Shown in pieces: positions 639 to 39,862 of a stretch of DNA of 54,599 nt (position 1 is its first letter; every line of letters begins with the position of its first letter). Source of the DNA: Perkinsus olseni (taxonomy: Eukaryota; Perkinsozoa; Perkinsida; Perkinsidae); NCBI GenBank assembly GCA_013115135.1, contig JABANP010000360.1:1-54599 (forward strand), in the 5' to 3' direction. A model generated the notes under the pieces. It was given only the letters and a program-made list of their open reading frames with translations, searched no databases and was not told the origin of the DNA. The translations under genes and the position numbers were made by a program.

Positions 639-659
639 AAATCACTGATTCGAAATCAG
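639..659 (-). repeat. 14-bp palindromic insertion (7-1-7-6), one mismatch
   Basis: Read on the minus strand: 7-nt arm, single base, inverted arm, then six bases of the arm again. On the plus strand AAATCA precedes CTGATTC, G and AAATCAG. One of the 13 constrained positions differs. Confidence 0.6.
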
Positions 660-850
660 CCACTCTTCTCTTACCTCACCTTTTGTAAAGTAACTGCCTT
701 GTCAGTCATCCTATGAAACGTCCCATATGCCCGTATGTGCGTGTCGTTCGACGGCTGGTTCCGGATCAATTACGCTCTCACCGATGTGCTCATTCCTCGA
801 AGGTATTATGCACAGGTCAATACGAACTGACTATCGAAGCACCAGACGCA

Positions 851-871
851 GAGGATTAAATCCTCAGGATT
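851..871 (+). repeat. 14-bp palindromic insertion (7-1-7-6), perfect
   Basis: Arm GAGGATT at 851-857, centre A, inverted arm 859-865, and arm bases 2-7 repeated at 866-871. All 13 constrained positions match. Confidence 0.85.
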
Positions 872-1370
872 TTGACCAGCCTCTTGACTCTGAATGCTTC
901 CCTCGGGGGTCTACTCGTTATCAGCTTTTCGAGAACCAAAGAGGTCTGGGAATACACCGTTCTGGGCGTTTGGGGCATTCTGACACCGATATGAGTAGTG
1001 CACCCCTCTCGGTTCTCGGCGTTGGACTAGAAGCTCACACACACAGACGTACCCGTCTCCACAGTCACTTCTCCAACTTCAAGCGCGAGTGCATATGGCT
1101 CGAGTAAACCTTTAAATCGAGGATCTGCATCCTCACTCCCTTCCAGTCCTCCATGCCCACGATTTCGCAGGATGAAAGCGAGCCCCTGGTACCAACCCGG
1201 CTTTCGGGTTGCGTTGCTGTGATGCAGCGTCACGATGACGGCGTCACCTGTGTTACCGGGAGTCCCTGACTATCCTGGGCCGCTTGAGCGCTTAACGTGC
1301 TTGCGTTGAACTGTGGGCACGCATGCGTCGCTCGGGCCGAACGCACTTTAATCCATAGTTTTTATCCGAG

Positions 1371-1393
1371 CTCGGAAAAGCCGCTTTTCCGAG
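1371..1393. repeat. Perfect palindrome, 11-nt arms around one base
   Basis: Arm CTCGGAAAAGC, centre C, then the exact reverse complement. It has the one-base centre of the 14-bp insertions but longer arms and no direct repeat of the arm beside it. It may be a related variant or a separate event. Confidence 0.6.
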
Positions 1394-2039
1394 AACTTGG
1401 ACTCGGAAATCAGAGCACCTCAATCGACTCCTGGTGTGACATCTGTTACGCCGCGTCACCTATCCCGGGTCTATCTCAACTGATCCAGCACAACTTCGTC
1501 CAGTGGTGTAGCCCGAAGCTTTAACTCGTCCGTATCAGTGCGTGATGAGAATGAGGTGCAGACAGTTAACCACCCGGTCGGCGTAGGGTTGGCGACTTGA
1601 GACATGATGGCACCCTCCGCGCCCTCCCCATGCGGTGAAAGCCTAGTCAAACTTCCGCACATCTGAGCCAGATCTGACTGAGGTGCGGCACATTCGTCCA
1701 ACCTAGCTTGGGGCTATGGCGCTTGTGAACACAGTGCGTGCGAGCGTTTCCTCTCCCTCGACCCCCTTGCAGCGACCCTGCACTGCGTTGAGTTGCCGTC
1801 GAAGCTTTCATAACAACCATCCGTCGTCGTAGCCGTCGCCGCTGCGAGAGTGGGCGAGCGCCAGTTCTGTCCCGTGGTGACGTGACACAAATCTGATGGT
1901 TTTGTTCACTACCAATCGACGTTCATAGTCTTGGGAGTCTGAGCTAGTCGCCGGCATTAAATCGGCAAATCTCAATACCGCCCTAATGTTCGGCTCCTTC
2001 TCGATGAATTATTCCTGTACTTCAGCTTCCGCCACCCCG

Positions 2040-2831
2040 ATGATGAACTCCGTCCCGACTTGGCTCCTGTTCGCTCAAGCTCTGGTCATAAGTACGGCCC
2101 AAGATGTTGGCAGGCTTGCTTACGAGGAGTCTTTCTTCAATATGTATTACGATGTGAACGAGAACAAAGAAGTTAAGTTGACGGTCGAAGTCCCCAGACC
2201 TCTGCATGGTAGAGGCGACATACCTATTGGCGTCGATTTCACTTGGGGGCCTTACCCCCTACGCAAAGAGGAGGGCTTCACCTACACCATCGACTTCAAG
2301 AAATCCGGGATATCACGTGATGATTGGGACCAGTCCATCGAGACTTTCCTTCGAAACAACGGAGTACTCGAGCATGATGACACATTCAACCCGGGTGATC
2401 TGGCCACTCTTACCTACACGGGCGGGGATGAGTTTTTCGTTAACCTCGGCGACGAAGAGATCCTCTTCTTAAGAGTGGGACGTGATTTGGTGCCGGGAGA
2501 ATACGTGTACAAGGAGCCCGTGTCCCCCCGTATGAGGATAAGTTACAAGATTTTCGATAATGGAACTGGTGGTGTACTGGTCAAGTGTAGGAGGCGTAGC
2601 ACTTCCCGCTTCGCTCACATGCTTTATCGTCGCGATCGTGGTCTTCAGTACCTTCACCATGCTGTGGAGTCAGCTGGGAGAGGTACTTTGGATCAATTTC
2701 GTGACCAAGTGAGGTATGTCTGCCCAGGCAAACGTGTGCTTCCCGATGACTTCTCAAGAGTAGTCGCCGCCACTGACAAGACGATTTATGTGGAGTTGGA
2801 AGGAGGTCGTCTGGCTCTCACTAAGGTCTAA
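2040..2831 (+). CDS. Secreted-family protein, copy 1
   Basis: A 263-residue protein of unknown function, the first of a family repeated through the window. I chose the ATG-ATG at 2040/2043. The longer frame from 1986 is disrupted in copy 2, and starting at 2040 puts a signal peptide at the N-terminus (MMNSVPTWLLFAQALVISTAQ, likely cleaved after AQ). The mature part has two conserved halves: an N-terminal module with YDVNEN and a PYPLR...FTYTIDF stretch, and a C-terminal module with PGEYVYKE, VKCRRRSTSRF, AGRGTLDQF, YVCPGKRVLPDDFSRV and a terminal ELEGGRLALTKV. Two cysteines (in VKC and VCP) are conserved in copies 1, 2 and 5. There is no membrane segment after the signal. I recognise no characterised domain; secretion is inferred from the signal peptide. 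Confidence 0.85.
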   Translation: MMNSVPTWLLFAQALVISTAQDVGRLAYEESFFNMYYDVNENKEVKLTVEVPRPLHGRGDIPIGVDFTWGPYPLRKEEGFTYTIDFKKSGISRDDWDQSIETFLRNNGVLEHDDTFNPGDLATLTYTGGDEFFVNLGDEEILFLRVGRDLVPGEYVYKEPVSPRMRISYKIFDNGTGGVLVKCRRRSTSRFAHMLYRRDRGLQYLHHAVESAGRGTLDQFRDQVRYVCPGKRVLPDDFSRVVAATDKTIYVELEGGRLALTKV

Positions 2832-4032
2832 GCCCTCCGTGTCGTGACACATCCGACATTGTGTGATAGACTGTTGATAGTTGTTTACTTTTAGCCCGAG
2901 TACTATCGGCCGCTACTCCGGGCAATTTTTTAGCTTCAGGGTCACTCTTCTCTGCCAGAGACGAAGTGCCTGATAGCCCCAATATTTCCCCGTCGAATTT
3001 CTGTATGAAGCATGGACCGCGAATAGCCTCTCTGATCAGAGAGGCTGCGGGTACTGATTCATCAGGTAGACTATGAGACTATTATTAATCTGGCATCATA
3101 GGACTCCAGCTCCTCTGATAGAGTGTAGCAGGCCTTGCTTTCGATGCCTTCTATCGTTCGTGGATCGTTCACGGTTCCCGAAGGCTTTTCCGCCCTTGTG
3201 CACCGGTTGTACGCATAACGATTCATTCTCGCTCCAGTGGTTCTACTCTTGCGTTACGAAAGAGCTGCGCGTCATTGAACCAATCATGCCATACTTGTCA
3301 GCCCCCTCAGTGTTCCCAGGGCAAATTCCATCGCCACTGCAACTAGGAATGGTCTGACACACACTCAGGCACCCTAACAGGGAGGGGCGTAGTTTCGAAA
3401 CTCAGCGAAGCTTCTTCATGCTGACGACTCCAAGGCGGTGCGTAACAGAGCGATTAGGAGCTTTCAATGACAACGCCCCGGTAGAGAGTATTAGGCTGTA
3501 GCGACATGAGAGATCTCATTAGTCTACCGAACGTGTTACGGAACAGAGTATGCAGCCTCGTGTTAGTGTGCACGGCAATCCTCATGACTGCATACGTAAC
3601 GGTGTCTAAGAGCCTCGAGCCCGCATGCCTTCGTGTTGTGAACGCTGATCTGAGCAGTTCAAAGCTCGAACTTTGGGGATCTCTTGGCGTCCACGCTGGA
3701 GTCGATCTCAGACTCACGGCTTCGTTTCCTACCACTCTTCTCACTACGCTCGCGAATGATCCATACAACAATGACACTACATTTACGACAGTACTATCGA
3801 TCAACTGGGCGAGCCACGGATACGGCGTAGGATAGGTCATGGCGACTCACGGCGGACTATCGCTTGCAACACTCCCCCACCGGGATCTTCCCTGCCGCAG
3901 AGGAGACCCATCATATACTCTCCGTAACACTACAGCGGTCAGCGAGAGAAAATTAAGTGCGGCAGGCATCACAGCAGCCAGCCCGAAGCCCTAGGCAATG
4001 AAACGACAGCGATTCGAGGATGGTGGACCACA
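2832..4032. other. Intergenic region between copy 1 and aminopeptidase gene 1
   Basis: No supported gene. A perfect 22-bp even palindrome lies at about 3025-3046 (arm AGCCTCTCTGA). Open frames on both strands overlap at 3454-3840, but neither shows family features. Confidence 0.4.
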
Positions 4033-6860: not shown

Positions 6861-7667
6861 ATGATGAACTTCGTCCCGACTTGGCTCCTGTTGGCTCAAG
6901 TTCTGGTCATTAGCACGGCCCAAGATGTTGGCACCTTCCTCCATGAGACGCCCCTCTTCAAAATGTTCTATGCTGTGAACGAGGAGCATGAAGCCACATT
7001 GACCGTCGTGGTCCCCTCAGTTTTGGTAACTAGGGGTGACAAAACCTTCGAAGCTTATTTCAACCGCGGGCCTAACCCCCTACGTAAGGTCGAAGATTTC
7101 ACCTACACCGTCGACTTCGATAGTTCCGAGTCAGCCAGTGATGATTGGCACGAGGCGCTCGAGACTTTCCTTGTAAACACCGGAGTGCTCGAGTCTGACG
7201 AGACCTACTCCCCCGACGACACTCAGCCTCGGCCGCTAACCACTCTCACCTACACGAGCGGTGATGAGTTCTCCGTCAACTTCCGCGGCGAAGAGATCCT
7301 CTTCTTGAGGCTTGGACGCAACTTGGTGCCGGGTGAATACGTGTACAAGGAGTCTGTGGCCCCTTACCTCAGGATAAGTTACACTATACGTGTCGATAGG
7401 GTTGGTGGTGTACTGGTTGAGTGTAAAAGGCGTAGCACTTCCCGTTTCGGCCACATGCTCGTTCGCCGCGATCGTGGTCTTCAATACATTTACCATGTTG
7501 TGGAGTCAGCTGGGAGAGGTACTTTGGATCAATTCCTTGACCAAGTGAAGTATGTCTGCCCAGGCAAACGTGTGCTTCCCGACGACTTCTCAAGAGTGGT
7601 CGTCGCCACTGAGAAGACGATCTACGTGGAGTTCGAAGGAGGCCGCCTGGCCCTCACTAAGGTCTAA
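6861..7667 (+). CDS. Secreted-family protein, copy 2
   Basis: A 268-residue paralogue of copy 1, very similar in the last 100 residues. It starts at the ATG-ATG used for copy 1 and opens with signal peptide MMNFVPTWLLLAQVLVISTAQ. The two-module layout is kept: YAVNEEHEATL and PNPLRKVEDFTYTVDF in the first half, then EILFLRLGRNLVPGEYVYKE, VECKRRSTSRF, AGRGTLDQF, VCPGKRVLPDDF and the FEGGRLALTKV end. Function unknown. It sits between aminopeptidase genes 1 and 2, as copy 1 sits before gene 1, which suggests the pair was duplicated as a block. Confidence 0.87.
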   Translation: MMNFVPTWLLLAQVLVISTAQDVGTFLHETPLFKMFYAVNEEHEATLTVVVPSVLVTRGDKTFEAYFNRGPNPLRKVEDFTYTVDFDSSESASDDWHEALETFLVNTGVLESDETYSPDDTQPRPLTTLTYTSGDEFSVNFRGEEILFLRLGRNLVPGEYVYKESVAPYLRISYTIRVDRVGGVLVECKRRSTSRFGHMLVRRDRGLQYIYHVVESAGRGTLDQFLDQVKYVCPGKRVLPDDFSRVVVATEKTIYVEFEGGRLALTKV

Positions 7668-12810: not shown

Positions 12811-13114
12811 GAGGGGCTCTTTGGCAAGTGTCCATTTGAAGAAGTTCATGTGAGACCCGTTGAATCGGACCTCAAGTGAGTACTCGGCGTCAGCGGAGAT
12901 CATGTGGAATTTGCCACTCGTGTTAGAAATTCGGCCTGTGTGCACGCTCGCGCCAGCCTCTGCCGCGCGGTGACGTGACGCTTGAGGGATTAGTTATCTT
13001 CCTGTTCACCGTCGTTCTTAGCGTGGGCAGCCCTCAGTCGTCCGCATATCCGTCGCCCTTGTGTGGTTGGTTTGTCGTCGAGGACTTTCCTTCAGGCCCA
13101 CCCTCATCTTCCTA

Positions 13115-13915
13115 ATGGTCAATTTCCTCTCGTCGATACTAATTGTTCAACCGTTGCTCGTTACGGCGCAATACGTCGGGAGGTATGTGTACGAGACGGA
13201 AGACTTTCGTATGATCTTCGATGTTAACGACGACCACGAAGCTGATTTCACATTCAAGGCCCATCCGAGGCTTGGCGTCACCCCAGAAGGCTCGACATCC
13301 TTCAGCACTGGGATGGTCCCCTTGGAAAATTTTTCCGATTCTGGCTATCTTTTTGCGCTCGGCAAGCGAGGCCCTGGCTACGCTACCTTCACTAATTTGT
13401 ACAACGCTATTGGCCACTATTTGAGCAAGGCCGGTATAATTCAGCCCGATGATTCGTTCCCCCCTGCTGGGATCCAACACGGTGACCTCACGTTGCTCAC
13501 CTACACTGACAGTGACCACATCTCCACCGACTTCCAGGGCGAGGAGGTAATTTTTAGGAAAGCTGGCATTTTGATACCTGGTACATTCGTGTACAACGAG
13601 CCAACTTCCCCAAGCTTAAAAGTGGTCTTCAAGGTATGCCCTGATGGGATTGTCCGGATAAAAGTCAAATGTGGAAGGCACAGTACTCCTCGTTTCCGTT
13701 GCAAGCTCACTTCTGGTAGTCGAGAGGAAATCTTCGTTGTGGGGCCCGCTTGTAAGGGCACCAGCTGCTCTGGGATGCTCGAGAAGGCCAAGAGTGTTTG
13801 CCGCAAGAGGTCTTTCGCCTCGGGCGATCTATCGGAGGTGGTCTTCGCTAATGATAAGACGATCTACACGAAGATAGAGGGGTCACGCAAAGCACTCACC
13901 AACGCCCGGGCTTGA
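13115..13915 (+). CDS. Secreted-family protein, copy 3 (divergent)
   Basis: About 266 residues from the ATG at 13115 (an in-frame ATG at 13061 would add 18 residues before the signal). The signal peptide is MVNFLSSILIVQPLLVTAQ. The family layout is kept but sequence is diverged: YETEDFRMIFDVNDDHEADF, then EEVIFRKAGILIPGTFVYNEP, VKCGRHSTPRF, SVCRKRSFASGDLSEVVFANDKTIYTKIEG. It has extra cysteines (TSCSG) and lacks the LALTKV ending. Function unknown. Confidence 0.82.
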   Translation: MVNFLSSILIVQPLLVTAQYVGRYVYETEDFRMIFDVNDDHEADFTFKAHPRLGVTPEGSTSFSTGMVPLENFSDSGYLFALGKRGPGYATFTNLYNAIGHYLSKAGIIQPDDSFPPAGIQHGDLTLLTYTDSDHISTDFQGEEVIFRKAGILIPGTFVYNEPTSPSLKVVFKVCPDGIVRIKVKCGRHSTPRFRCKLTSGSREEIFVVGPACKGTSCSGMLEKAKSVCRKRSFASGDLSEVVFANDKTIYTKIEGSRKALTNARA

Positions 13916-24055: not shown

Positions 24056-24114
24056 ACGGCCAATTAGCCGAGGTCTACATTTTCTGAGAATGTAGACCTC
24101 GGCTAACTGGCCGT
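24056..24114. repeat. Inverted repeat, 26-nt arms, 7-nt loop
   Basis: Left arm 24056-24081 and right arm 24089-24114 pair with a single mismatch around the loop TTCTGAG. It lies in intergenic DNA. It could be a small mobile hairpin, or a product of the palindrome-making process seen elsewhere. Confidence 0.8.
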
Positions 24115-24809
24115 AGTTACTACGGCGTAGTATGATTTTCATGACATTGTCCACATTTCAAAACGGAAATCAAATTGGAAACGCAAATTTCAGCAAGTTT
24201 TACCAGGAAGCTGACTGAAATTTCCGACGGCTCGGAAATCTCCTGGATGCGTGGAACCCGGTTTTGGTGTGTTATGAGAATTTTCCAGAGTCGATGCTCT
24301 GCTGGTCTGGCCCACCACTCCCGATGAAGACCGCCGTTGTAATAACTAGCCGAACCCGACGCACCGCTCCGGGGCTCTCTTAGAGAACCCAACTTCTCTC
24401 TAAGCGCGAGCGAGCTCGAGAACTGCTGTAGCTCGATCACGCTCGGGGGTATACGCAGTTTGTATGGGGAAAGTGAGACTTACTTGAGACGGTAGGTAGT
24501 TCAATCGAATGAGAAAGCACTGAAGGAACAGAACTTCGCTCTCCAGATTGCTCATTGGATGAGACAATAGTCGAGGCTGAAGACGCAAGGGGTTATAACG
24601 CGTGATTCACTAGCGAATAATTTGCATTCTGTAGGATGTCGAATCTGCTTGTTGTCATGAGCAGAGCATGAGTTCATGTAGACTTATCACGAGAACTTAG
24701 AAAAGGTTGAAGAAGGCAACAAAGTCAGCTTCCGCGAAAAAATATCGTTCGAAGTTGAAGTAGCGCGTCATGAGAAGGAATCCGAATGCCGTGTTCATAT
24801 CACGTAGTT

Positions 24810-24830
24810 TCATCGGCGATGAATCATCGC
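24810..24830 (-). repeat. 14-bp palindromic insertion (7-1-7-6), perfect
   Basis: Minus-strand orientation: TCATCG (24810-24815), GCGATGA, centre A (24823), TCATCGC. All 13 constrained positions match. Confidence 0.85.
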
Positions 24831-24844
24831 TCTAACGAAGAATG

Positions 24845-25326: not shown

Positions 25327-25343
25327 GTGCATGAATCATGCAC
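25327..25343. repeat. Palindrome, 8-nt arms around one base
   Basis: GTGCATGA, centre A, then its reverse complement. There is no adjoining direct repeat, so it is not counted among the 14-bp insertions. Confidence 0.5.
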
Positions 25344-26292
25344 ATTCAATGAGAACATGAACAATTTGAGGCCATTGACCTCGTGGCCACTACAGTATAA
25401 GTACTGTGTTGTCCCAAAGTATGAGAAAAGTGATCTCGCGGAGCATTTGGGATGGATGTATGCTCACTAGCCTGACGACGAATGCACGTGTTCGCCGGGA
25501 TGAACGGATGCACCGCGAACCAAGGCGCATGCACTACAGTGAAAACATAGTGACGACTATAGCGTACGCTATGTAACAGCTACAGCCTGGTTAAACACTA
25601 CTCAGCTGTTAGACTACCATAGCTACTCTTGCCTTACTCATAGTAAGGCGTAGTAAGTTCCAATGCGCTTTGCACTAGCGTCCATGAGCATACGTGCTAC
25701 ACTAAGCTAAGCGTAGTGAGCTGTAGTGCTCATTATCGCTGCGCTCCCCTCGAGCCCAATCTTACCTTCCTTTGAGCCCCGTCTCAAAAAGCCACAGTGT
25801 ACAGAGTGTTATGCCTGCGAGTTGCAGAGGGTAGAAACTGGCTTGAAGCCAGTGGCTTCGTTTCGCCTGTTTCGGTTCGCCTGCATCTTGCCTCGCGGCG
25901 CCCTTGTCCATTTACTGTAGGTGGCTGCGCTGTGCGCATGCGTGCACCGCAGCTTGATATAAGGCCCGAGTCAGGGAAGATTAGGGTTGGACTTAACGGG
26001 TCTTCCCACGCACAGTCATTTAGAATGTGTGACGTTGTTGCCTCTCCTACTGGTTCTCAGTCACCGAATCATTCTCGTAGATCCAGGGTGCTCCGCCGTT
26101 GGAAAGAATGGTTGGGTGGATGGAAAAATGGGAAAATACAGAAAAATACGGCAACAATGGAAAAATATGGAAAAATTTTTCGCGCTTCGCGCGTTAATCT
26201 TGAATCCATCGGGTTTGCGAGTGTGAAAGGAAAGCTGAATTTGCGAGACGTGCCCACAAATCTAATTCACCCTATGAGTCTCACAGTAATCG

Positions 26293-26313
26293 CTGAGCGC
26301 CGCTCAGTGAGCG
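26293..26313 (+). repeat. 14-bp palindromic insertion inside the hAT element, perfect
   Basis: Arm CTGAGCG, centre C, inverted arm, then TGAGCG. All 13 constrained positions match. Confidence 0.85.
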
Positions 26314-26481
26314 GTTCTCGTGGAATGCATTCATGTCCTCGGAGAGCCACCTCGTACATGATTTGACCTGGAAGTCCGCCGTTCTAATCTTGCGCTCTTG
26401 TGAAACGCCACAGTCCAAGTATTGGAAACTTCGCTAGATCTTGCAAGAACGCAAGATCGAAATGTTGTTTCTTGGTGGGCG

Positions 26482-26502
26482 GTGCCCACTGGGCACTGCC
26501 CA
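26482..26502 (+). repeat. 14-bp palindromic insertion inside the hAT element, perfect
   Basis: Arm GTGCCCA, centre C, inverted arm, then TGCCCA. All 13 constrained positions match. Confidence 0.85.
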
Positions 26503-26811
26503 GGGCACCTCCTCCTCCTCATCCTCCTCCCTCCAGGGTCCTCTGGTGTCTCTTTTGAACGTGTTGCTGTTGTCGGCGGATGTTACCCCTTGTGCGTAGC
26601 CACGAAGTCGACAACGGTAGCCGTTACGGTCGATATGTCCAATTCGTTCTTACGCGCGCCAATCACGTCTATTCCATTCCTGTGGGCGACCATCCATTGT
26701 GGGAATATGTGAATGAAAGAGAGGAAAGGTCAACTCAGAACTCATTGCCCAGCACGTCGGATCTCTGGGGGAAGAGCAGCCGTTGGAGTTGAGAATGCGT
26801 ATTTTGTATGA

Positions 26812-26832
26812 GCGCCCGGCGGGCGCCGCCCG
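26812..26832 (+). repeat. 14-bp palindromic insertion inside the hAT element, perfect
   Basis: Arm GCGCCCG, centre G, inverted arm, then CGCCCG. All 13 constrained positions match. Confidence 0.85.
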
Positions 26833-27458
26833 CCCAGTGTCGGCGCGTTGCGTTGCAAATCGCAGTCTGTCCCCCGATTTGTGACACCAGTGGCGAAAAT
26901 TCTACTGCCAAGCCTCCGGTTCCCACGCTTTGGCTTACGGGTGGGCCGAAAAACGGTTCTTTGGGTGGATTTCCTGTGGTTTCACGTTATTTTGCTATTT
27001 TTCCATATTTTTCCACCATTTTGTTGCGGCAGGAAATTTTCCGCAGGAAAGATTGGGAAAATAGAATTGCTGCCATTTTGGAGCACCCTGCGTAGATCTT
27101 TTTTGCCTCCTAGGCTACCCTTCGATTGTCGTTGGGTTTCTCTAGTAGTGGATAGGTAACAAGTGTTATAGTGCACACACGAAGAGCAAGGTGGGTACGC
27201 AGCTGCAATAAAGGTAGTTGTCACTATAGTGCAGAGGTGTTCTCGTGCGACGGAATTTCGAACTAACGCGATGTCAAATGCTTGCAGCTCTTGTCTGAAT
27301 CCTATGTGAGCACTCAACTCAACCGGTTAACAGTCAGAAGTCAACAGGCACTAGCTGTGATCGCTATGCTAACTACTAGCTAGCTATTAGCTAGCTAAAG
27401 CTTAGCTCACTCCGAAATCATTCATTGCGTTCAACTTTGTACCACGTTCGAGGCGTGG

Positions 27459-27479
27459 TCGGGGAATTCCCGACGGGAA
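27459..27479 (+). repeat. 14-bp palindromic insertion with empty site in copy 4 leader
   Basis: Arm TCGGGGA, centre A, TTCCCGA, CGGGAA (one mismatch). The copy 4 leader has TCGGGAA once at 22556-22562, and the two leaders differ by 14 bp here. Confidence 0.78.
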
Positions 27480-27559
27480 TTCATGGCCAGTAGTGCATTA
27501 TTGATACTGAGTGGCGGTTCAATCGTTGAACGGCCTCGATTGAGCCCGGTTTCGTCTGT

Positions 27560-27580
27560 GTTAGCTCAGCTAACTTAGCT
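27560..27580 (+). repeat. 14-bp palindromic insertion with empty site in copy 4 leader, perfect
   Basis: Arm GTTAGCT, centre C, inverted arm, then TTAGCT. The copy 4 leader reads straight through a single GTTAGCT at 22665-22671, with matching sequence on both sides. The gain is exactly 14 bp. Confidence 0.93.
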
Positions 27581-27677
27581 GTCAGGGTAGGACAAACCTC
27601 CGCTACCATCGTCGTCATCGAGCCCTCGCTTCCCATCGGATCTTCGATGACTATCTTGTCTTCCGGCGTGATGCTCT

Positions 27678-27698
27678 TCGTGTGACACGAATCGTGTC
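27678..27698 (-). repeat. 14-bp palindromic insertion (7-1-7-6), perfect
   Basis: Minus-strand orientation: TCGTGT, GACACGA, centre A, TCGTGTC. All 13 constrained positions match. Confidence 0.85.
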
Positions 27699-27739
27699 AG
27701 CTTCCGAGTACATTTGTGGCCGACATCTCCACTTCCCAA

Positions 27740-28600
27740 ATGATGAACTTTCCCCTAAATTGGTTGGTAATGAATCAAGCCCTGGTTATCGTCAGCACGG
27801 CTCAGGATGTTGGCAAGTTTGTTCACGAGACGGCAGACTACCGTATAACCTACGATGTGAATGAGAACCATCAAGCTACTTTTACTTTCTGGGTTCCGAG
27901 TCCACCTGGATGGTGGTCCCCGGACAGGAGTTCTTACAGCTTCAGTGTCGTTAGGCAACCACATGAGGAGTTCACCCACGGGCCATACCCCTTGTCAAAG
28001 ACCGACACTTCTACCTACGCCGTCGAATTTGATGGTTCAAGAGCCAGTGCTCATGATTGGTATAAGTCTATTGAGAGGTTACTGCTGAGGAACAACGTCA
28101 TTGACAACGATCATCCCGAGCGGTATGGTGATGTTCAGCCTGGGGACTTGTCCGTTCTGACTTATACGAGCGGTGACGCTTTCTCAACCTCGTTCCGAAA
28201 TGAAGAAATCAAGCTCATGAGGGTGGGAGGCAGCCTGATTCCGGGCTTGTTTGTGTTCAAGCAGAAAGTGGCTCCCTATCTCGAGGTTCGTTACAGAATA
28301 CATCTTGACGGGCGTGGAGATATGAGGTTTAAGTGCAAGAGGCGTCGAACCTCTCATTTAAGTTTCAAGCTTTCCCGCCGCACGAAGGGTCTGTTATACG
28401 ATCACTATGCTGTGGAACCGGCCGGTGGTGGTACCTTATATCAATTCCTCCACCAGGTCAGGGCTGTTTGCCCGACCACACATTTGGATGCTGACGACCT
28501 ATCGAAAGTGGTCTTCGCCACTGAGAAAACTATCTTCGTGACACTTGGAAAGGCTCGCTTGGCTCTCACCTCCTCGGCTCTCTCTATCGGAGGTGCGTAA
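27740..28600 (+). CDS. Secreted-family protein, copy 5
   Basis: 286 residues from the ATG-ATG at 27740, with signal MMNFPLNWLVMNQALVIVSTAQ. Family marks: YDVNENHQATF, a PPGWWSPDRSSYSF insert as in copy 4, GPYPLSKTDTSTYAVEF, SGDAFSTSFRNEEIKLMRVGG, MRFKCKRRRTSHLSFKL, AVCPTTHLDADDLSKVVFATEKTIF. The C-terminus is altered (ARLALTSSALSIGGA). This copy is the closest relative of the relics inside each tandem unit to the right, so its locus appears ancestral to the array. Confidence 0.86.
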   Translation: MMNFPLNWLVMNQALVIVSTAQDVGKFVHETADYRITYDVNENHQATFTFWVPSPPGWWSPDRSSYSFSVVRQPHEEFTHGPYPLSKTDTSTYAVEFDGSRASAHDWYKSIERLLLRNNVIDNDHPERYGDVQPGDLSVLTYTSGDAFSTSFRNEEIKLMRVGGSLIPGLFVFKQKVAPYLEVRYRIHLDGRGDMRFKCKRRRTSHLSFKLSRRTKGLLYDHYAVEPAGGGTLYQFLHQVRAVCPTTHLDADDLSKVVFATEKTIFVTLGKARLALTSSALSIGGA

Positions 28601-29006
28601 CCAGTTCATTTCTACTTTTGTCTTTTCCTCTTTTTCGTGCGCCGCTTGCTGCGCAGAACGTGCTGACATGTATGAGCCTTGTGGCTTCCTGTCCAATGCC
28701 TCGGGCGCTGCTTCAGCAGATACACGAGGAAGACTATTATCATGGTATCAATGACAGACTTCTATCACTCAGCATAGCTCACGAGGTCATTCCGCCTTGT
28801 CACCTGAGCCCTCTGCTGTGCGCAGTAGCTAAGACTTTCTCAAATCCCGTATTCCATGCCATTTGCGTTCTACGAGTTGGGCCTCGTTCGCTACCAATCC
28901 GAATAAGGTGGGGCCGCCAACGCCACAGTATTGCATCTTGAGTCTTCGCAACCCGAATCGTCGGGGTTCCAGCGAAGGAGCGTTTGATACTCAATGCATT
29001 CTTTTC

Positions 29007-29897: not shown

Positions 29898-30637
29898 CAC
29901 CTTTTCCCGAGCAAATAAAATGTTTTTCGTTCGGTTTAAACCATTTTGATAGCAATTTAGCGAGTGTCATTGGAATTAAAAAATTGTCAAACCAAATTCG
30001 TTTTGTCACCAAAATTAATATTATGAGCAAATACGATTTAACCCGTGTCATTCTATTTGAATCGATTTTGATCCAAATTCGCTATCTAAATCATTCTGCT
30101 ACTACGACCCCCTTCCTGCAACTCGAACACATACTCTAAGCTCATGAAACACGGTAGAACACTAATGCTCGTGAATCACGAGTCGTGATTCTTGCCAACG
30201 GTAACCATACTTCAATGATTCGATCCGGTGGAAGCTCCTCCGAGAACGCTGCCACGTGTGACATCATGTCACTGGCGTGATGTCACGGCTACTACTGTAC
30301 TGTATATGAACTACCTACCATGTTTCGTGTTACCCTCAGCTAATGCTGTGCCTTAGAAGTCCGACGCCATTGACGTTGATCATATTGAGATAGAAGCTAC
30401 GGGATGAAAATTTCACGATGAGACATGCAATGAACAACGGGGATGCGCGCGACTAATTCGGTGACTACTGTAGAGCATTCTAAATTGCATGGAAAGTGAG
30501 ATTTAATATGCGTGACACAAGTATTTTAAACTTGCTAAAGTATTTAAAGTGGATAAAAACTTTTTTAAAATGAAATTCGATTTTCCGTGCCCTTTTAAAT
30601 CAAACGAAAAAACATTTTATTTGCTCGGGAAAAGGTG
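29898..30637. mobile_element. Non-autonomous TA-flanked terminal-inverted-repeat element
   Basis: The 740-bp AT-rich element starts CACCTTTTCCCGAGCAAAT and ends with the matching inverted copy. The terminal repeats extend about 45 bp with a few mismatches. It is flanked by TA on each side (29896-29897 and 30638-30639), the target duplication of the Tc1/mariner superfamily. There is no transposase frame. It interrupts sequence homologous to the tandem-unit spacer. One palindromic insertion (30168-30188) lies inside it. Confidence 0.85.
30168..30188 (+). repeat. 14-bp palindromic insertion inside the TA-flanked element, perfect
   Basis: Arm CTCGTGA, centre A, inverted arm, then TCGTGA. All 13 constrained positions match. 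Confidence 0.85.
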
Positions 30638-31445: not shown

Positions 31446-31466
31446 GTCCCACCGTGGGACTCCCAC
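31446..31466 (+). repeat. 14-bp palindromic insertion (7-1-7-6), perfect
   Basis: Arm GTCCCAC, centre C, inverted arm, then TCCCAC. Removing 14 bp leaves GAGTCCCACGGGGTC, which aligns with GAGCCCGACGGGCTC at about 29418-29432. Confidence 0.88.
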
Positions 31467-31726
31467 GGGGTCAATTTCAGCTGATGGAGTTCATCACCAA
31501 CGAGGATTGGTCACTCTCGACGAGAGTCTCGTCCCATGGCAGCATAACACCCATGCTTCAGATATTCTTCTGGTTTTCTAAGTGATCGCGTTGTAATCCG
31601 TTTACTGACCAAGGGGCTCGACTAGAGACCCTCAGATCATGCTTCGACCGTTAAGTACGCTTTTCCTCCCTCTCGGTTCCCGGGAAACGTCCGTGACGCC
31701 GTGACTTATGGCGCCGCCAGGTTCCC

Positions 31727-31896: not shown

Positions 31897-31917
31897 CCTC
31901 AGGGCCTGAGGCTCAGG
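31897..31917 (+). repeat. 14-bp palindromic insertion (7-1-7-6), perfect
   Basis: Arm CCTCAGG, centre G, inverted arm, then CTCAGG, about 50 bp before the first tandem-unit gene. Confidence 0.83.
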
Positions 31918-31969
31918 CTGCTGGTCATTTTTCCTCCCGAGTTTCCTCAATCGCTTTTCTTCTCTTTTC

Positions 31970-32860
31970 ATGGGACACCCCACCCTGCCCTGGCTACTAG
32001 TCGCTCAGGCTCTGGTCATCACGGTGGCTCAGGACGCTGGCAAGTACGTCCACGAGAACAGAGATTTCACTATGACTTACTATGTGTACGAGGACCACAA
32101 AGTCGATTTTGCCTTCACGCTGAGTGGCGAACCCGAAACAAGTCGTCCCAATAGCCGGTCTGTGATTTACTCGTTCAGTCCCGGAGCTTTCTACGTCACG
32201 TGGCCGTTCCCGTTAGCGGAGGAGGCGAGCTCTGTGTACACCCTCCACGACGATCATTCTCATCTGAGTTTTGATGACTGGTATAACACAATCAAGTTCT
32301 TGCTAGCAAACGCTGGCCTTGTCGAGCCCGAAAACCTCAACCCTCTGGCGGAGATCCAGCCTGGGGACTTGGCCACCTTGACTCACTACGGCAAGAACTC
32401 TATCACCACGAGCTTCCGGAAAAGAGAGCTCAAGTTTTTGCGGGTGACGCCTACCCTGACACCGGGTGAGTATGTCTACGAGGGACCTCTCTTCACTATG
32501 ACTTACGATGTGAACGAGGATCATGAAGTTACATTCTCGATCTATGTCCCTGAGCCTCCGCTACGTAGGGGTGATATACCTGTAGCTGCTTCTATTTCCC
32601 TTGGCCCGTATCCTTTACGGAGTGTTACCGGTTTCACTTACACCCTCGGCTTCGATAAGACTGGGCCCGACGCGCTTGATTGGCGTGTGGAGCTCGACCG
32701 CTTCTTCAGAAACACTGGACTGATGGATTATGACAAGTTCTACCCATCTGCACCTAGCCAGGAGTGGGATCTTACGGTTCTAACCTACACGAGCGGTCAC
32801 TCTATCGTAACCAACTTCCAGGAGGAGAAGGTCGAGCTCAAGAGGGTCGCACGCAACTAG
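31970..32860 (+). CDS. Tandem unit A: secreted-family gene with duplicated N-terminal module
   Basis: 296 residues with signal peptide MGHPTLPWLLVAQALVITVAQ. Unlike copies 1-5 it contains two N-terminal-type modules in series. The first is about residues 22-165 (RDFTMTYYVYEDHKVDF ... ELKFLRVTPTLTPGEYVYEGP). The second is about 166-296 (LFTMTYDVNEDHEVTF ... PYPLRSVTGFTYTLGF ... EEKVELKRVARN). It stops at the TAG at 32858, where other members continue RN-LVPGEYVYKE. Past the TAG the frame still reads ALGAYVIEEM before a second stop, so the usual C-terminal module has been lost. A pyrimidine-rich tract immediately precedes the ATG. Function unknown. Confidence 0.8.
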   Translation: MGHPTLPWLLVAQALVITVAQDAGKYVHENRDFTMTYYVYEDHKVDFAFTLSGEPETSRPNSRSVIYSFSPGAFYVTWPFPLAEEASSVYTLHDDHSHLSFDDWYNTIKFLLANAGLVEPENLNPLAEIQPGDLATLTHYGKNSITTSFRKRELKFLRVTPTLTPGEYVYEGPLFTMTYDVNEDHEVTFSIYVPEPPLRRGDIPVAASISLGPYPLRSVTGFTYTLGFDKTGPDALDWRVELDRFFRNTGLMDYDKFYPSAPSQEWDLTVLTYTSGHSIVTNFQEEKVELKRVARN

Positions 32861-34079: not shown

Positions 34080-34310
34080 ATGCATTCTGTCCCGACTTGG
34101 CTGATAGTCGCTTAGCGGTGACGCTTTCTCAACCTCCTTCAGAAATGAAGAAATCAAGTTCATGAGGGTGGGAGGCAGCCCGACACCGGGCGAGTATGTA
34201 TAAAACATAATGTATTCAAGGAGAAAGCGGGTCCCTATCTCGAGGTGAGTTACAGAATACGCTCTGACGGGTATGGAGATATGGGGGTTAAGTGCAAGAG
34301 GCGTCACGAG
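34080..34310 (+). pseudogene. Relic of a copy-5-like secreted gene (unit A)
   Basis: A start and part of a signal peptide (MHSVPTWLIVA) run into a stop. Sequence matching the middle of copy 5 follows (SGDAFSTSFRNEEIK...RVGGSPTPGEYV, about 28165-28330), with internal deletion and stops. The 3' side continues into copy-5 downstream sequence (GAAGACTATTATCAT). The same relic is at 37552-37795, 44163-44395 and 53168-53410. Confidence 0.8.
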
Positions 34311-34793
34311 AAAGACTATTATCATAGTACTAATGTTAGACTATCACTAAGCATAGCTCAGGACTCCTTTTTCCCTTATCTCCAGAGACTTGCGCAGTAC
34401 CTCAGTGCCAATTCATTCACCCTCCTGTCCTCGCAACTCCAGTCGACAAGCTCCAGTGAAGGAACATTCAGGATTCAATTGTCTGCTCCCTTACACGGAG
34501 CACTGCAGAGTCGTGCGCTCCTATGTGCTGCGGGAAAATATGTTCGATACTTTGAGTGAGTAACCTATCCGATAGGTTCCGATAGGTGCGATAGGTCCTA
34601 TCGCAGCGCAGAACCCGTCGGGGCAAGGCAATTGACCACTTTGAAGGCACTCTTGACAGCAGTTCCGTGGACATTGGGATTCGCTGAGAGTGAGGACCAT
34701 GGGGATAACGTTAGCAACATTATGGTGTCACATGATATTGAATGGCTGATGCCTCCGAGTGGTATCCGGAGTCGGGTACATGGCGCGGGACAC

Positions 34794-35040
34794 TGTCCCG
34801 GACCAAGTCACGGACCACCGTCCGCATCACGTTCCGGACCACGTTCCGCATCACGTCCCAGACCACGTTCCGGACCACGTTCCGGACCACGTCTCGAACC
34901 ACGTCTCGGACCAGGTCTCGGACCAGGTCCCGGACCACGTTCCGGACCACGTCCCGGACCACGTCCCGGGCCACGTCCTAGACCACGTCCCGGGCCACGT
35001 CCTGGACCACGTCCCGGGCCACGTCTCGGACCAGGACCCA
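34794..35040. repeat. 12-bp minisatellite, unit A
   Basis: About twenty tandem copies of a 12-bp unit related to GTTCCGGACCAC with variants (GTCTCGGACCAG, GTCCCGGGCCAC). Because 12 is a multiple of 3, several frames stay open on both strands and spell four-residue repeats (VPDH, GPRS, RTTS, VRDV). These are repeat artefacts. It ends about 390 bp before the next gene start, so it might affect the promoter. Confidence 0.93.
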
Positions 35041-35114: not shown

Positions 35115-35135
35115 CTGCATTTAATGCAGTGCATT
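35115..35135 (+). repeat. 14-bp palindromic insertion shared by all tandem units, perfect
   Basis: Arm CTGCATT, centre T, inverted arm, then TGCATT. Also at 38570-38590, 45198-45218 and 54177-54197, so it was present in the founder unit. Confidence 0.87.
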
Positions 35136-35179
35136 ACGTCACGAACTATAACCATGCATTTCCTCCTCCTCGGGTCTCG

Positions 35180-35427: not shown

Positions 35428-36332
35428 ATGAGAAACCCCGACCTACTCTGGCTACTAGTCGCTCAGGCTCTGGTCATCACGGTGGCTCAGGACGCTGGCA
35501 AGTTCGTTCACGAGAACAGAGATTTCACTATGACTTACTATGTGTACGAGGACCACAAGGTCGATTTTGCCTTCACGCTAAGTGGCGAACCCGAAACAAG
35601 TCCGCCCCATAGCCGGTCTGTGACTTACGCATTCAGTCCCGGTGCTTTCTACGTCACGTGGCCGTTCCCGTTGGCGAGGGCGGCGAGCTCTGTGTACACC
35701 CTCCACGAGTCGTGGACCACGACGAGCATTCTCATCTGAGCTTTGATGACTGGTATAACACAATCAAGTTCTTGCTAGCAAACGCCGGTCTTGTCGAGCC
35801 CGAAAACCTCAACCCTCTGGCTGAAATTCAGCCTGGGGACTTGGCCACCTTGACTCACTACGGCAAGAACTCTATCACCACGAGCTTCCGGGAAAGAGAG
35901 CTCAGGTTTTTGCGGGTGACGCCTACCTTGACACCGGGTGAGTATGTCTACGAGGGACCTCTCTTCACTATGACTTTCGATGTGAACAAGGATCATGAAG
36001 TTAAATTCTCGATCTATGTCCCTGAGCCTCCGCTACGTAGGGGTGATATACCTGTAGCTGCTTCTATTTCCCTTGGCCCGTATCCTTTACGGAGTGTTAC
36101 CGGTTTCACTTACACCCTCGGCTTCGATAAGGCTGGGCCCGACGCGCTTGATTGGCGTGTGGAGCTCGACCGCTTCTTCAGAAACACTGGACTGATGGAT
36201 TATGACGAGTTCTACCCATCTGCACCTAGCCAGGAGTGGGATCTCACGGTTCTAACCTACACGAGCGATGGCTCTATCGTAACCAACTTCCAGGAGGAGA
36301 AGGTGGAGTTCAAGAGGGTCGCACGCAACTAG
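35428..36332 (+). pseudogene. Tandem unit B: secreted-family gene frameshifted by a 14-bp palindromic insertion
   Basis: Nearly identical to the unit A gene, with signal peptide MRNPDLLWLLVAQALVITVAQ. The frame is broken at 35709-35722 by a palindromic insertion absent from unit A. Translation from the ATG stops at 35739 after ESWTTTSILI. The remainder, matching unit A from HSHLSFDDWYN, is open in another frame to the same terminal KRVARN and TAG. Unless the 14 bp are bypassed, only about 103 residues are made. Confidence 0.88.
35702..35722 (+). repeat. 14-bp palindromic insertion in coding sequence, empty site in unit A, perfect
   Basis: Arm TCCACGA, centre G, inverted arm, then CCACGA. Unit A has the arm once at 32244-32250 with the same flanks. 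The net gain is 14 bp and the reading frame shifts. Confidence 0.95.
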
Positions 36333-37609
36333 GCGCTGGGTGCGTACGTGATCGAAGAAATGTGTCTCTAACCAGGATACGCAGCCTCAAGTGGTGTGAT
36401 ACATTTTCACTTCTTGAACAGGGCTGGGTAACATTATGATAATACCGCTTGATTCACAACGAGAAGTCCATACTCGAGATGGAAATTTTGTGAGATACAA
36501 GGTCGGTTATGCTCCTCCTCCGCAATGCGGAGTCCGCATGACCATCATAAGATACCTTTCTTTCGTATTATCTGTGTGATGCAATTTCTCACTCAGATTA
36601 TAGTCATAATGACTAAGTTGTTTTGTCCTGGCTTTCACGCACTCAAGTGAACCGATTGTACTGCGCGATACGACCGAGTAAGGGTGCGTGACACGACCAG
36701 CTGACCGCTTTTTTCACTCGTATACTTTTTATCTCACTTTTGGGACCATTTTGTACCACATGTATCATCGTTTCGAGTTTTGGTGTAGCCCCCTAAAATT
36801 GGGAGCTCATAGCTAACGCGTTGTACGTTATGAAACTAACGTACGACTTCGAGGGGGTTCTCGGTCCCCGGTCGCATTTTTTCGTCACTAACAATCAAGT
36901 GTCTTATTTCTTTCTCACGCTGTCTGCTTCCCCTACCCATGACCTCCTGATCGAGTTCTTGAGTAGGTAAGTGCGCATGCGTCATGGATCGTCCTGCACC
37001 TTCACAAAGTAAGGTTGCGATATCGAATAGTCCACCTCGTGTAACGAAGGACTATTACTACTGTTGATGGACTAGGAGGAATACAAATCAGCTCACCGCC
37101 TACCTGTCAACCACTTGCCCGCCACGACGATCTCCTTTCGTTAACGTGATCTTAATCGACGATTTGCGAAGTCGACTCTCATCTGATCGCAGGAACGCAT
37201 CACCCAGCTGCTGCGTGAGGTAATACAAGCAGTGAGGGCAGGATACTCGGCCCGTCGAATTCAGAGGCGTCGGAAAGGTCTCAGATAGCCGCCCTGACGT
37301 TGAACCAACTTCAGTTCGCGGAGGATACTCGAGAACGTCATTAACCTCGATTTATCGTCACAACACAACACTTGACTTCTCATGCGAGGAAACTGACGAT
37401 TACCACAATTCCTCAGCTGCGTAAGACGTTATCAATTCGATATAGTTTCCTCATATTCTCCGTAGATTTGATGTACCACCTCGTGTGTCAACGCTGTGTA
37501 GTGCAAGGTATCATTATCGGACTCTCGAGTAGCATCTTAAACCTCCTAGCGATGCATTCTGTCCCGACTTGGCTGATAGTCGCTTAGCGGTGACGCTTTC
37601 TCAACCTCC

Positions 37610-37630
37610 TTCAGAATTTCTGAATCAGAA
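37610..37630 (+). repeat. 14-bp palindromic insertion, empty site in unit A, perfect
   Basis: Arm TTCAGAA, centre T, inverted arm, then TCAGAA, within the relic gene of unit B. Unit A has TTCAGAA once at 34138-34144 followed by the same ATGAAG. Confidence 0.95.
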
Positions 37631-38198
37631 ATGAAGAAATCAAGTTCATGAGGGTGGGAGGCAGCCCGACACCGGGCGAGTATGTATAAAACATAATGTA
37701 TTCAAGGAGAAAGCGGGTCCCTATCTCGAGGTGAGTTACAGAATACGCTCTGACGGGTATGGAGATATGGGGGTTAAGTGCAAGAGGCGTCACGAGAAAG
37801 ACTATTATCATAGTACTAATGTTAGACTTCTATCACTGAGCATAGCTCAGGACTCCTTTTTCCCTTATCTCCAGAGACTTGCGCAGTACCTCAGTGCCAA
37901 TTCATTCACCCTCCTGTCCTCGCAACTCCAGTCGACAAGCTCCAGTGAAGGAACATTCAGGATTCAATTGTCTGCTCCCTTACACGGAGCACTGCAGAGT
38001 CGTGCGCTCCTATGTGCTGCGGGAAAATATGTTCGATACTTTGAGTGAGTAACCTATCCGATAGGTTCCGATAGGTGCGATAGGTCCTATCGCAGCGCAG
38101 AACCCGTCGGGGCAAGGCAATTGACCACTTTGAAGGCACTCTTGACAGCAGTTCCGTGGACATTGGGATTCGCTGAGAGTGAGGACCATGGGGATAAC

Positions 38199-38219
38199 GT
38201 TAGCATTGCTAACTTAGCT
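38199..38219 (+). repeat. 14-bp palindromic insertion, empty site in unit A
   Basis: Arm GTTAGCA, centre T, inverted arm, then TTAGCT (one mismatch). Unit A has GTTAGCA once at 34710-34716 followed by ACATTATGG. The gain is 14 bp. Confidence 0.92.
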
Positions 38220-38298
38220 ACATTATGGTGTCACATGATATTGAATGGCTGATGCCTCCGAGTGGTATCCGGAGTCGGGTACATGGCGCGGGACACTG

Positions 38299-38495
38299 TC
38301 CCGGACCAAGTCACGGACCACCGTCCGCATCACGTTCCGGACCACGTTCCGCATCACGTCCCAGACCACGTTCCGGACCACGTTCCGGACCACGTCTCGA
38401 ACCACGTCTCGGACCAGGTCTCGGACCAGGTCCCGGACCACGTCCCGGACCACGTCCCGGACCACGTCCCGGGCCACGTCTCGGACCAGGACCCA
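38299..38495. repeat. 12-bp minisatellite, unit B (contracted allele)
   Basis: Same repeat as in unit A with four to five fewer 12-bp copies, missing from the GGGCCAC/TAGACCAC stretch. The copy number therefore differs between adjacent units. Confidence 0.88.
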
Positions 38496-38881
38496 GGGCT
38501 TTCCCCGTATATTTTGCCACATTAACTCATCGGCACCGTCTGTACTGAGCTCATAGTCCCGTTTCTCCTCTGCATTTAATGCAGTGCATTACGTCACGAA
38601 CAATAACCATGCATTTCCTCCTCCTCGGGTCTCGGGGAACCGTTTCACTGAAACGTCAGTGATGTCGCGACTTGTGGCGCCAAGCCCGCGCGTGCGAGTT
38701 GGTTTGATCGAACACTGTATAGCTGAAACCAGAGCAAATCATTGAGTTTCTCACATCGACGAAGTCAGAAGAAATTGCCTCCCTGAACTACAATGAGGTA
38801 TCAGAGATTGAAACCTCCCGATGAGACTCTCATGAGAGGCTTTCCTCATTAGCTTCTGCCATTCAGTCCCTTCTTTTCTTA

Positions 38882-39483: not shown

Positions 39484-39516
39484 GTCTTCGTCGACGCGCT
39501 GCGCGTCACAAGTACG

Positions 39517-39537
39517 AACAATCGTTGTTCAACAATG
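39517..39537 (-). repeat. 14-bp palindromic insertion, one mismatch
   Basis: Minus-strand orientation: AACAAT, CGTTGTT, centre C, AACAATG. Confidence 0.65.
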
Positions 39538-39649
39538 ACAAGTGTCATGTTATACGTGGCGTGCGCACTAAACTGTGAAACTCCCTTATTGCAGGCGCGT
39601 ATCTGAAGACTTTCATCCGATCTCTGTGCGCGCCATCCCTCCCTGGCAG

Positions 39650-39670
39650 GCGCTCCGGGAGCGCCGCTCC
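39650..39670 (+). repeat. 14-bp palindromic insertion, perfect
   Basis: Arm GCGCTCC, centre G, inverted arm, then CGCTCC. All 13 constrained positions match. Confidence 0.85.
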
Positions 39671-39682
39671 CAGCTGCACGCG

Positions 39683-39703
39683 AGTACAGCCTGTACTGTA
39701 CAG
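39683..39703 (+). repeat. 14-bp palindromic insertion, perfect
   Basis: Arm AGTACAG, centre C, inverted arm, then GTACAG. Only 12 bp separate it from the preceding insertion. Confidence 0.85.
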
Positions 39704-39841
39704 GGACCCTGCACTCGCGTGGATTCTCCCGCACTCTATTGAACACATGCTCCCCGAACTTCGCAGAGAAGTCTCCCGCCAGTCCGGTTCCGATACTCTG
39801 CAGTAACGGCACACCAGTAAGAGTACCCGAGCTGATCCAAG

Positions 39842-39862
39842 TTGGCCAGCCCAACTTGGGCT
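39842..39862 (-). repeat. 14-bp palindromic insertion, one mismatch
   Basis: Minus-strand orientation: TTGGCC, AGCCCAA, centre C, TTGGGCT. One substitution in the 6-mer. Confidence 0.65.

What the first reader, a model, noticed from the sequence alone, without database searches (positions are those of the whole stretch)
639..39862. A class of 14-bp palindromic insertions with fixed 7-1-7-6 geometry
At about 29 distinct loci the sequence reads X(7), one free base, reverse complement of X(7), then X without its first base (6). Seventeen copies satisfy all 13 constrained positions: 851, 24810, 26293, 26482, 26812, 27560, 27678, 29007, 30168, 31446, 31897, 35115, 35702, 36519, 37610, 39650, 39683. 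About a dozen more have one mismatch. Chance per position is about 4 to the minus 13, or roughly 0.002 expected in this window on both orientations. Arms differ at every locus and the centre base varies (A, C, G, T), so this is not a sequence family but a fixed-geometry process that copies whatever is at the target. Candidate mechanisms are hairpin-templated repair of a staggered break, such as an excision footprint with P-type nucleotides, or a constrained template switch. I know of no described element of this form.
Basis: seen in the sequence. Interest (0 to 1): 0.96.

Follow-up and report, generated by a model that had tools for sequence, protein, structure and literature searches.

The report
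Uniform scars of departed jumping genes
A single-celled genome, likely that of the mollusc parasite Perkinsus olseni, carries many 14-base insertions that each mirror and repeat their own 8-base site; they are most likely scars left where hAT-type jumping genes cut themselves out, and their uniform shape suggests that this organism seals such breaks in nearly one way.

Summary
Each scar turns an 8-bp target T into T1-7 + rc(T) + T2-8 (+14 bp, 14 constrained positions). The window holds 24 exact copies (20 distinct targets), with none in 20 shuffles. A 200-kb sample of the same genome holds 38, with no comparable excess at other lengths. Comparing paralogs, 20 of 21 distinct 14-bp insertions are these scars, and in 15 of the 20 the partner copy holds T at the gap. 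The same genome has hAT-type transposons with 8-bp target duplications: one in the window (26084-27090), and a 506-bp family 99-100% alike among its 12 full-length copies. Two insertions have pristine empty paralogs. Scar targets share the target bias of those elements (T at 2, A at 7). The geometry follows if hAT transposase leaves hairpin-capped flanks that are opened and annealed through the two T copies. I therefore read the scars as hAT excision footprints. Palindromic footprints centred on the complement of the bordering base are known from Ac/Ds. What is unusual is one full-length, TSD-templated form at a density that suggests thousands genome-wide. Missing: a site with the element in one copy and the scar in another.

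The parts
100..121 (.). exact scar, T=CTTCTCCT
851..872 (.). exact scar, T=GAGGATTT
24111..24132 (.). exact scar, T=CCGTAGTA
24809..24830 (.). exact scar, T=TTCATCGC, shared with paralog C74
25838..25859 (.). exact scar, T=CTGGCTTC, shared with paralog C74
26076..26083 (.). left 8-bp target site duplication CGTAGATC of a resident hAT-type element; paralog C74 (L073) holds CGTAGATC once at this place, with no element
26084..27090 (.). resident hAT-type element, 1007 bp, terminal repeat CAGGGTGCTCC; 6 of the 9 copies looked at (this one included) have both ends with their own 8-bp duplication
27091..27098 (.). right 8-bp target site duplication CGTAGATC
26293..26314 (.). exact scar inside the element, T=CTGAGCGG, also in the other copies that cover the site (with 1-2 mismatches in L050 and L048); in copy L049 a younger scar is nested in it
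26482..26503 (.). exact scar inside the element, T=GTGCCCAG
26812..26833 (.). exact scar inside the element, T=GCGCCCGC; present in the window, L047 and L053; empty target in L048, L049, L050, L051 and L052; L046 differs from both
27560..27581 (.). exact scar, T=GTTAGCTG, shared with C74
27677..27698 (.). exact scar, T=TTCGTGTC, absent from paralog C74
29007..29028 (.). exact scar, T=TGTCTGGT
30168..30189 (.). exact scar, T=CTCGTGAT
31446..31467 (.). exact scar, T=GTCCCACG
31897..31918 (.). exact scar, T=CCTCAGGC
34138..34145 (.). empty target TTCAGAAA in paralog A, the site scarred in B at 37610
34710..34717 (.). empty target GTTAGCAA in paralog A, the site scarred in B at 38199
35115..35136 (.). 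exact scar, T=CTGCATTA, present in all four paralogous segments
35702..35723 (.). exact scar, T=TCCACGAC; a partner segment in the window holds T without the insertion
36518..36539 (.). exact scar, T=CTCCGCAT
37610..37631 (.). exact scar, T=TTCAGAAA, only in segment B; segments A and C have the empty target; lies in a segment similar to the ORF at 27716-28600 and shifts its frame
38199..38220 (.). scar with one mismatch, T=GTTAGCAA, only in segment B; A, C and D have the empty target
38570..38591 (.). exact scar, copy of 35115
39650..39671 (.). exact scar, T=GCGCTCCC
39683..39704 (.). exact scar, T=AGTACAGG
44221..44228 (.). empty target TTCAGAAA in paralog C
45198..45219 (.). exact scar, copy of 35115
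45797..45818 (.). exact scar, copy of 35702
54177..54198 (.). exact scar, copy of 35115

Best explanation
The 14-bp insertions, each of which rewrites an 8-bp target T as T1-7 + rc(T) + T2-8, are most likely excision scars of hAT-type cut-and-paste transposons whose hairpin-capped flanks would be opened and joined by pairing the two copies of T. Steps. (1) Shown: hAT-type elements in this genome insert with an exact 8-bp duplication, leaving T-element-T. (2) Inferred from hAT chemistry: the transposase nicks one base into each flank, so T8 on the left and T1 on the right leave with the element, and each flank is closed by a hairpin whose tip carries the complement of the lost base. (3) Inferred: the hairpins are opened some bases from the tip, giving 3' tails whose first eight bases are rc(T) on the left and T on the right. 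(4) Inferred: these tails are complementary over eight bases whatever the flanks are; they anneal, any excess is trimmed, gaps are filled, and the product is exactly T1-7 rc(T) T2-8. The fixed 7-8-7 geometry thus comes from the 8-bp duplication, not from a fixed nick position.
For: Insertion of exactly 14 bp at one T: 37610 and 38199 in segment B against empty A and C (and D for the second). In an all-against-all comparison of the fetched DNA, 14 bp is the commonest insertion of 5 bp or more: 22 of 81 rows, 21 distinct events after merging two rows of one event. Of these 21, 20 are scars (19 by script within 2 mismatches; one, L006:986, by eye, since the aligner shifted it; one search also scored it as a scar), and in 15 of the 20 the partner holds T at the gap. 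Of 28 rows of 6-13 bp, where shorter footprints would fall, only 4 fit a partial form within one mismatch, and two of these lie in triplet repeats. Two more scar events were seen. hAT elements: 9 of 9 copies of the 506-bp family fetched at both ends, plus L043, have perfect 8-bp duplications; its 2874-bp relative L076 has duplication GTGTCGGG and a hAT dimerisation domain at 21.9 bits, cut-off 21.4; 21 hAT dimerisation hits genome-wide. Two insertions have pristine empty paralogs. Scar targets are biased to T2/A7 (0.39 each; p=5e-7), like the element duplications (0.50), and 17 element duplications score above 5000 random 8-mers on the scar profile (p=1.2e-5). T2/A7 is the Hermes preference (PMC10368747, passages; PMC8721813, passages). 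Model: a simulation that joins by the longest pairing returns the observed string in at least about 95% of random cases when four or more bases pair.
Against: No site was found with the element in one paralog and the scar in another, so the conversion of a filled site into a scar is not shown. Filled polymorphic sites (2) are much rarer than polymorphic scars (22) in what I compared, though not over identical regions; none of the 8 longer-insert candidates had an 8-bp overlap. One of 21 distinct 14-bp events (L073:1361) is not a scar. The uniformity is unusual: hAT footprints elsewhere are mixed, 28 types among 128 in Candida (PMC5873905). In the sequence scan the shortest class, T1-7 directly followed by T2-8, is also above resampled sequence (289 against 78) and cannot be told from short tandem repeats, so simple footprints may be hidden there; one-base classes are 29 and 27 against 19 and 17. 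Hairpins were not observed.
Confidence: 0.87

Rival explanations
1. Hit-and-run cutting: a hAT or domesticated transposase makes an 8-bp staggered break at an unoccupied target (or an aborted insertion), the ends are filled in and hairpinned, and the same annealing gives the scar, with no resident element.
For: Polymorphic scars outnumber polymorphic insertions 22 to 2 in what was compared; no filled-to-scar pair found. The same string would result, and the target bias would also be that of hAT.
Against: It needs an extra step with no example here; resident hAT elements with 8-bp duplications and near-identical copies exist. A repeated cut-and-paste cycle also leaves many scars per resident copy.
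Confidence: 0.07
2. Template-switch mutation: the replication fork copies T backwards from the other strand and returns, without any transposon.
For: The product has the inverted-copy-between-direct-copies form that a double switch would make. One longer inverted duplication (40 bp, C74 against window 25365) shows that other palindromic insertions occur.
Against: Switch lengths should vary; in 200 kb k=8 gives 38, its equal-trim neighbours 1 and 0. The one-base offsets and the T2/A7 bias shared with the elements are unexplained.
Confidence: 0.03
3. Excision scars of another transposon superfamily with 8-bp duplications, such as Merlin, which has been reported from Perkinsus marinus (PMC8101967).
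For: Merlin makes 8- or 9-bp duplications and relatives occur in Perkinsus marinus (PMC8101967, passages). The genome was not searched for Merlin here.
Against: Merlin has terminal repeats of 24 bp or more ending in GG; the 8-bp-duplicating elements found here have short repeats starting CA, TA or GA, and the 2874-bp one carries a hAT domain. I recall no flank-hairpin chemistry for Merlin.
Confidence: 0.03

Closest known systems
Ac/Ds (hAT) excision footprints in plants, yeast and Candida albicans
   Same: Palindromic P-nucleotide insertions centred on the complement of the bases that border the transposon, hairpin intermediates, microhomology at the joint (PMC5873905, passages; PMC1978519, passages).
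   Different: There the products are mixed: 28 types among 128 in Candida, arms up to 20 nt in yeast, 11 of 17 alike in one Arabidopsis study of an atypical Ds. Here the detected scars carry the whole rc(T): 20 polymorphic 14-bp scars against at most 4 partial ones.
hAT superfamily transposons (Hermes, hobo, Ac, Tam3)
   Same: 8-bp duplication, short terminal repeats starting CA or TA, T2/A7 target bias, hAT dimerisation domain in the transposase.
   Different: The scars are not the element; they hold no transposon sequence.
V(D)J recombination coding joints
   Same: Flank hairpins, P nucleotides, microhomology (recalled; the comparison is also made in PMC1978519).
   Different: No programmed joining and no signal sequences; the complementary overhangs would come from the target duplication.
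Excision sites of DNA transposons in rice genome comparisons
   Same: Excisions usually leave altered sites; 58 of 94 carried filler, on average 13 bp (PMC4423477, passages).
   Different: There the filler is described as foreign and variable (1 to 123 bp), and hAT events were few; here the added bases are the target's own complement and repeat, 14 bp net.

Membership tests
hAT excision footprint | Inverted repeats centred on the complement of the base that bordered the transposon on each side | tested here: met
   24 of 24 exact window copies: left centre = complement of T8, right centre = complement of T1
hAT excision footprint | Derived from an 8-bp target | tested here: met
   Sharp peak at k=8; the partner holds T at the gap in 15 of 20 scar events
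hAT excision footprint | The site previously held a hAT element | tested here: inconclusive
   No paralog pair with element against scar found; shared target bias is indirect support
hAT superfamily (elements at window 26084-27090 and L043 1428-1933) | 8-bp target site duplication | tested here: met
   9 of 9 copies of the 506-bp family fetched at both ends, plus L043; 6 of 9 copies of the window family (window, L046, L047, L048, L050, L053; the other three lack an intact left end); empty paralogs
hAT superfamily (elements at window 26084-27090 and L043 1428-1933) | Short terminal inverted repeats starting CA (as listed for hAT in PMC4423477) | tested here: met
   CAGGGTGCTCC and CAGTGTGTTG; L009 has TAGAGATGGGC
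hAT superfamily (elements at window 26084-27090 and L043 1428-1933) | Transposase with hAT dimerisation domain in a longer relative | tested here: met
   L076, longer relative of the 506-bp family: PF05699 21.9 bits against cut-off 21.4, so marginal. For the window family no coding relative was looked for.
Merlin | Terminal repeats of 24 bp or more ending in GG | tested here: not met
   The elements found have short repeats that do not start GG (definition from PMC8101967)
Template-switch mutation | Variable length of the copied inverted stretch | tested here: not met
   One dominant length

The most novel reading that the evidence does not exclude
In this alveolate parasite, breaks left by departing hAT transposons are sealed by one nearly deterministic route: opened hairpins pair through the target duplication itself. 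Every departure therefore writes the same signed 14-bp scar, and the genome keeps a countable fossil record of thousands of jumps that far outnumber the resident elements and can shift reading frames in gene families.
Probability: 0.6. Interest if true: 0.75.

Novelty: new variant of a known kind. Interest (0 to 1): 0.6.

Why it matters
The Ac/Ds footprint studies I read passages of score footprints at one reporter locus at a time. Here one genome keeps them in large numbers, in one recognisable form with almost no background in resampled sequence. That would let transposon departures be counted and dated without the elements, and the repair route after hairpin breaks be studied in an alveolate. 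It also names a source of +14 frameshifts in a parasite's gene families.

Tried and rejected
Chance: rejected by resampled sequence and by the E. coli control. A sequence family: rejected, since targets differ (89 distinct among 115 exact copies in 330 kb). RNA genes: no Rfam match at gathering thresholds in the window, no tRNA. Template switching and Merlin: see rivals. A link with introners was considered only from a paper (PMC7789003, passages: introner direct repeats there are 3-5 nt) and not tested. Search for a filled-to-scar pair: not found. Repair genes: a partial Ku hit just over its cut-off, one DRMBL (SNM1/Artemis/Pso2-type, recalled) hit and 9 family-A polymerase matches; this does not decide the pathway. 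L012 gave no match in solved structures. Paper searches in the held library listed no report of such scars in Perkinsus; I saw only the listed part (12 of 108, 12 of 2,174), and most subscription papers are not held. One search ran with unsupported BLAST scores and gave nothing; it was repeated as and more strictly. In some searches alignments under 78% identity or 150 bp, and gaps whose flanks matched at fewer than 16 of 20 bases, were dropped before counting.
Full report
What was checked. All 17 listed copies exist, three of them one base off. Every one of the 24 exact + strand copies in the window also obeys a further constraint: the free centre base pairs with the base that follows the motif. 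The unit is therefore 22 bp long and is best written T1-7 + rc(T1-8) + T2-8 for an 8-bp T. It reads the same way on both strands. With 14 constrained positions the window has 24 exact, 9 one-mismatch and 22 two-mismatch copies, against 0, 0 and 0.1 in the mean of 20 Markov-1 resamplings.

Is the geometry a sharp peak? Target length 5 to 14 and trims 0 to 3 on each side were tabulated in the window; lengths 5 to 14 with equal trims 0 to 2 were tabulated in a 200-kb sample of the same genome, 10 kb from each of 20 contigs. Length 8 with one base trimmed at each side stands out: 24 in the window and 38 in the sample. Equal-trim neighbours at length 7 and 9 give 1 and 0 in the sample. In the window four unequal-trim classes of length 6, 7 and 9 have 4 to 6 hits where resamplings have none; I did not follow these. 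Twelve further resamplings of the 200 kb gave no exact scar, and 50 kb of E. coli K-12 gave none. Density is uneven: 8 of 20 sampled loci have none and one (L044) has 15.

What organism. The nearest relatives of the ORF at 27716-28600 are proteins of Perkinsus olseni (up to 92% identity) and P. marinus. I take the genome to be P. olseni; no record name was shown.

The insertions are 14 bp at a single T. The window contains four paralogous segments. Segment B has a scar at 37610 where A and C read TTCAGAAA once, and another at 38199 where A, C and D read GTTAGCAA once. Between L044 and its 94.6% identical paralog on C131 the indels of 10 bp or more are 14, 14, 14 and 13 bp, and all three 14s are scars. 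Between the window at 24131-28700 (element left out) and its 97% identical paralog on C74 there are four 14-bp indels, three of them scars, besides one of 15 and one of 40 bp. Over the fetched DNA (53 sequences, 339 kb), 14 bp is the commonest insertion size of 5 bp or more: 22 of 81 rows, 21 distinct events. Nineteen of the 21 span a scar with at most two mismatches by script; L006:986 is a scar by eye; L073:1361 is not. In 15 of the 20 the partner holds T at the gap. Of the 59 rows of other sizes, 4 overlap a scar; the 12-bp and 18-bp ones are known scars aligned against a third variant. Two further events (L048:468, and the C74 scar that faces window 24617) make 22.

Are other footprint lengths hidden? 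Shorter joints would appear as insertions of 6 to 13 bp. Of 28 such rows, 4 fit a partial form within one mismatch, and two of those lie in triplet repeats. In the sequence scan, classes with two or more bases of rc(T) reach at most 9 against 87 full ones; the class with none (289 against 78 in resampled sequence) cannot be told from short tandem repeats.

Transposons with the right duplication are present. A search for 8-bp direct repeats enclosing terminal inverted repeats found a 1007-bp element in the window (26084-27090, duplication CGTAGATC), a 506-bp element in L043 and a third type in L009, besides one weaker candidate in L035. The 506-bp family has 12 full-length copies 99-100% alike. 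Nine of the other eleven were fetched at both ends, and all nine have perfect 8-bp duplications, each different. Of nine copies of the window family looked at, six have both ends with matching duplications. The 2874-bp relative of the 506-bp family, L076, has duplication GTGTCGGG and encodes a stretch with the hAT dimerisation domain, just over the cut-off. hAT dimerisation domains occur at 21 places in the genome, and one ORF of about 580 residues has that domain and DUF4371, which I recall as part of hAT transposases. Two insertions could be compared with a paralog without the element, and both partners hold T once with nothing added.

The scar targets look like the element targets. Among 89 distinct scar targets, T is favoured at position 2 and A at 7 (0.39; G2 0.13; p=5e-7). 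The 17 duplications of actual elements have the same lean (0.50) and score above 5000 random 8-mers on the scar profile (p=1.2e-5). This is the preference reported for Hermes (passages).

Why the geometry follows. hAT footprint palindromes are described as centred on the complement of the base next to the element, with hairpin opening and microhomology joining (passages of PMC5873905; PMC1978519; the one-base nick of Hermes is recalled). With T on both sides, the left hairpin gives a 3' tail that begins with rc(T) and the right hairpin one that begins with T. These pair over eight bases whatever the flanks are. A simulation that joins by the longest pairing returns the observed string in at least about 95% of random cases when four or more bases pair. 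Hairpins, nicks and annealing are inferred here, not observed.

What is known and what is not. The kind of product is known: it is a hAT footprint with long P nucleotides. The uniform, full-length form is the variant; other hosts give a mixture. What is missing is a site seen both filled and scarred. In the paralogs compared, scars (22) outnumber filled sites (2), though the regions are not identical. A cut-and-paste cycle in which each resident copy has moved many times would do this; so would cutting without lasting insertion, which I keep as the main rival.

Consequences. The scar at 37610 lies in a segment similar to the coding sequence at 27716-28600 and shifts its frame; an older, two-mismatch scar at 34195 lies in the same stretch of segment A. 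Scars can be nested: copy L049 carries a younger, imperfect scar inside the older one at the position of window 26293.

Noticed in passing
window 25365 against L073 (C74): C74 carries a 40-bp insertion that makes an inverted duplication with arms of about 34 bp by eye, a much longer palindrome than the scars; it could be a one-sided hairpin product or a template switch.
   Followed up: partly
window 47916-51407: Reverse-transcriptase ORF (RVT_1) followed by two further ORFs; the last (50271-51407) resembles, from memory, a tyrosine recombinase, as in DIRS-like retroelements, but has no Pfam match.
   Followed up: no
window 1986-2831, 6861-7667, 13061-13915, 22645-23526, 27716-28600, 31970-32860: Family of related ORFs with a hydrophobic start; the two tested have no Pfam match, and all 18 relatives found for one of them are Perkinsus proteins.
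   Followed up: partly
window 34795-35033, 38298-38488, 44896-45116, 53921-54094: Minisatellite with a unit near GTCCCGGACCAC that varies in length between the four paralogous segments.
   Followed up: no
L043 1428-1933 and its genome copies: A 506-bp hAT-type element 99-100% identical between 12 copies: a very recently, perhaps currently, mobile family.
   Followed up: yes
L046, site matching window 26812: Copy L046 is 18 bp shorter than the scarred copies and 4 bp shorter than the empty ones at this target; possibly a different repair product.
   Followed up: no
L009 1967: A 7-bp insertion at the right end of the 8-bp-duplicating element of L009 fits a partial footprint form with one mismatch.
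   Followed up: no
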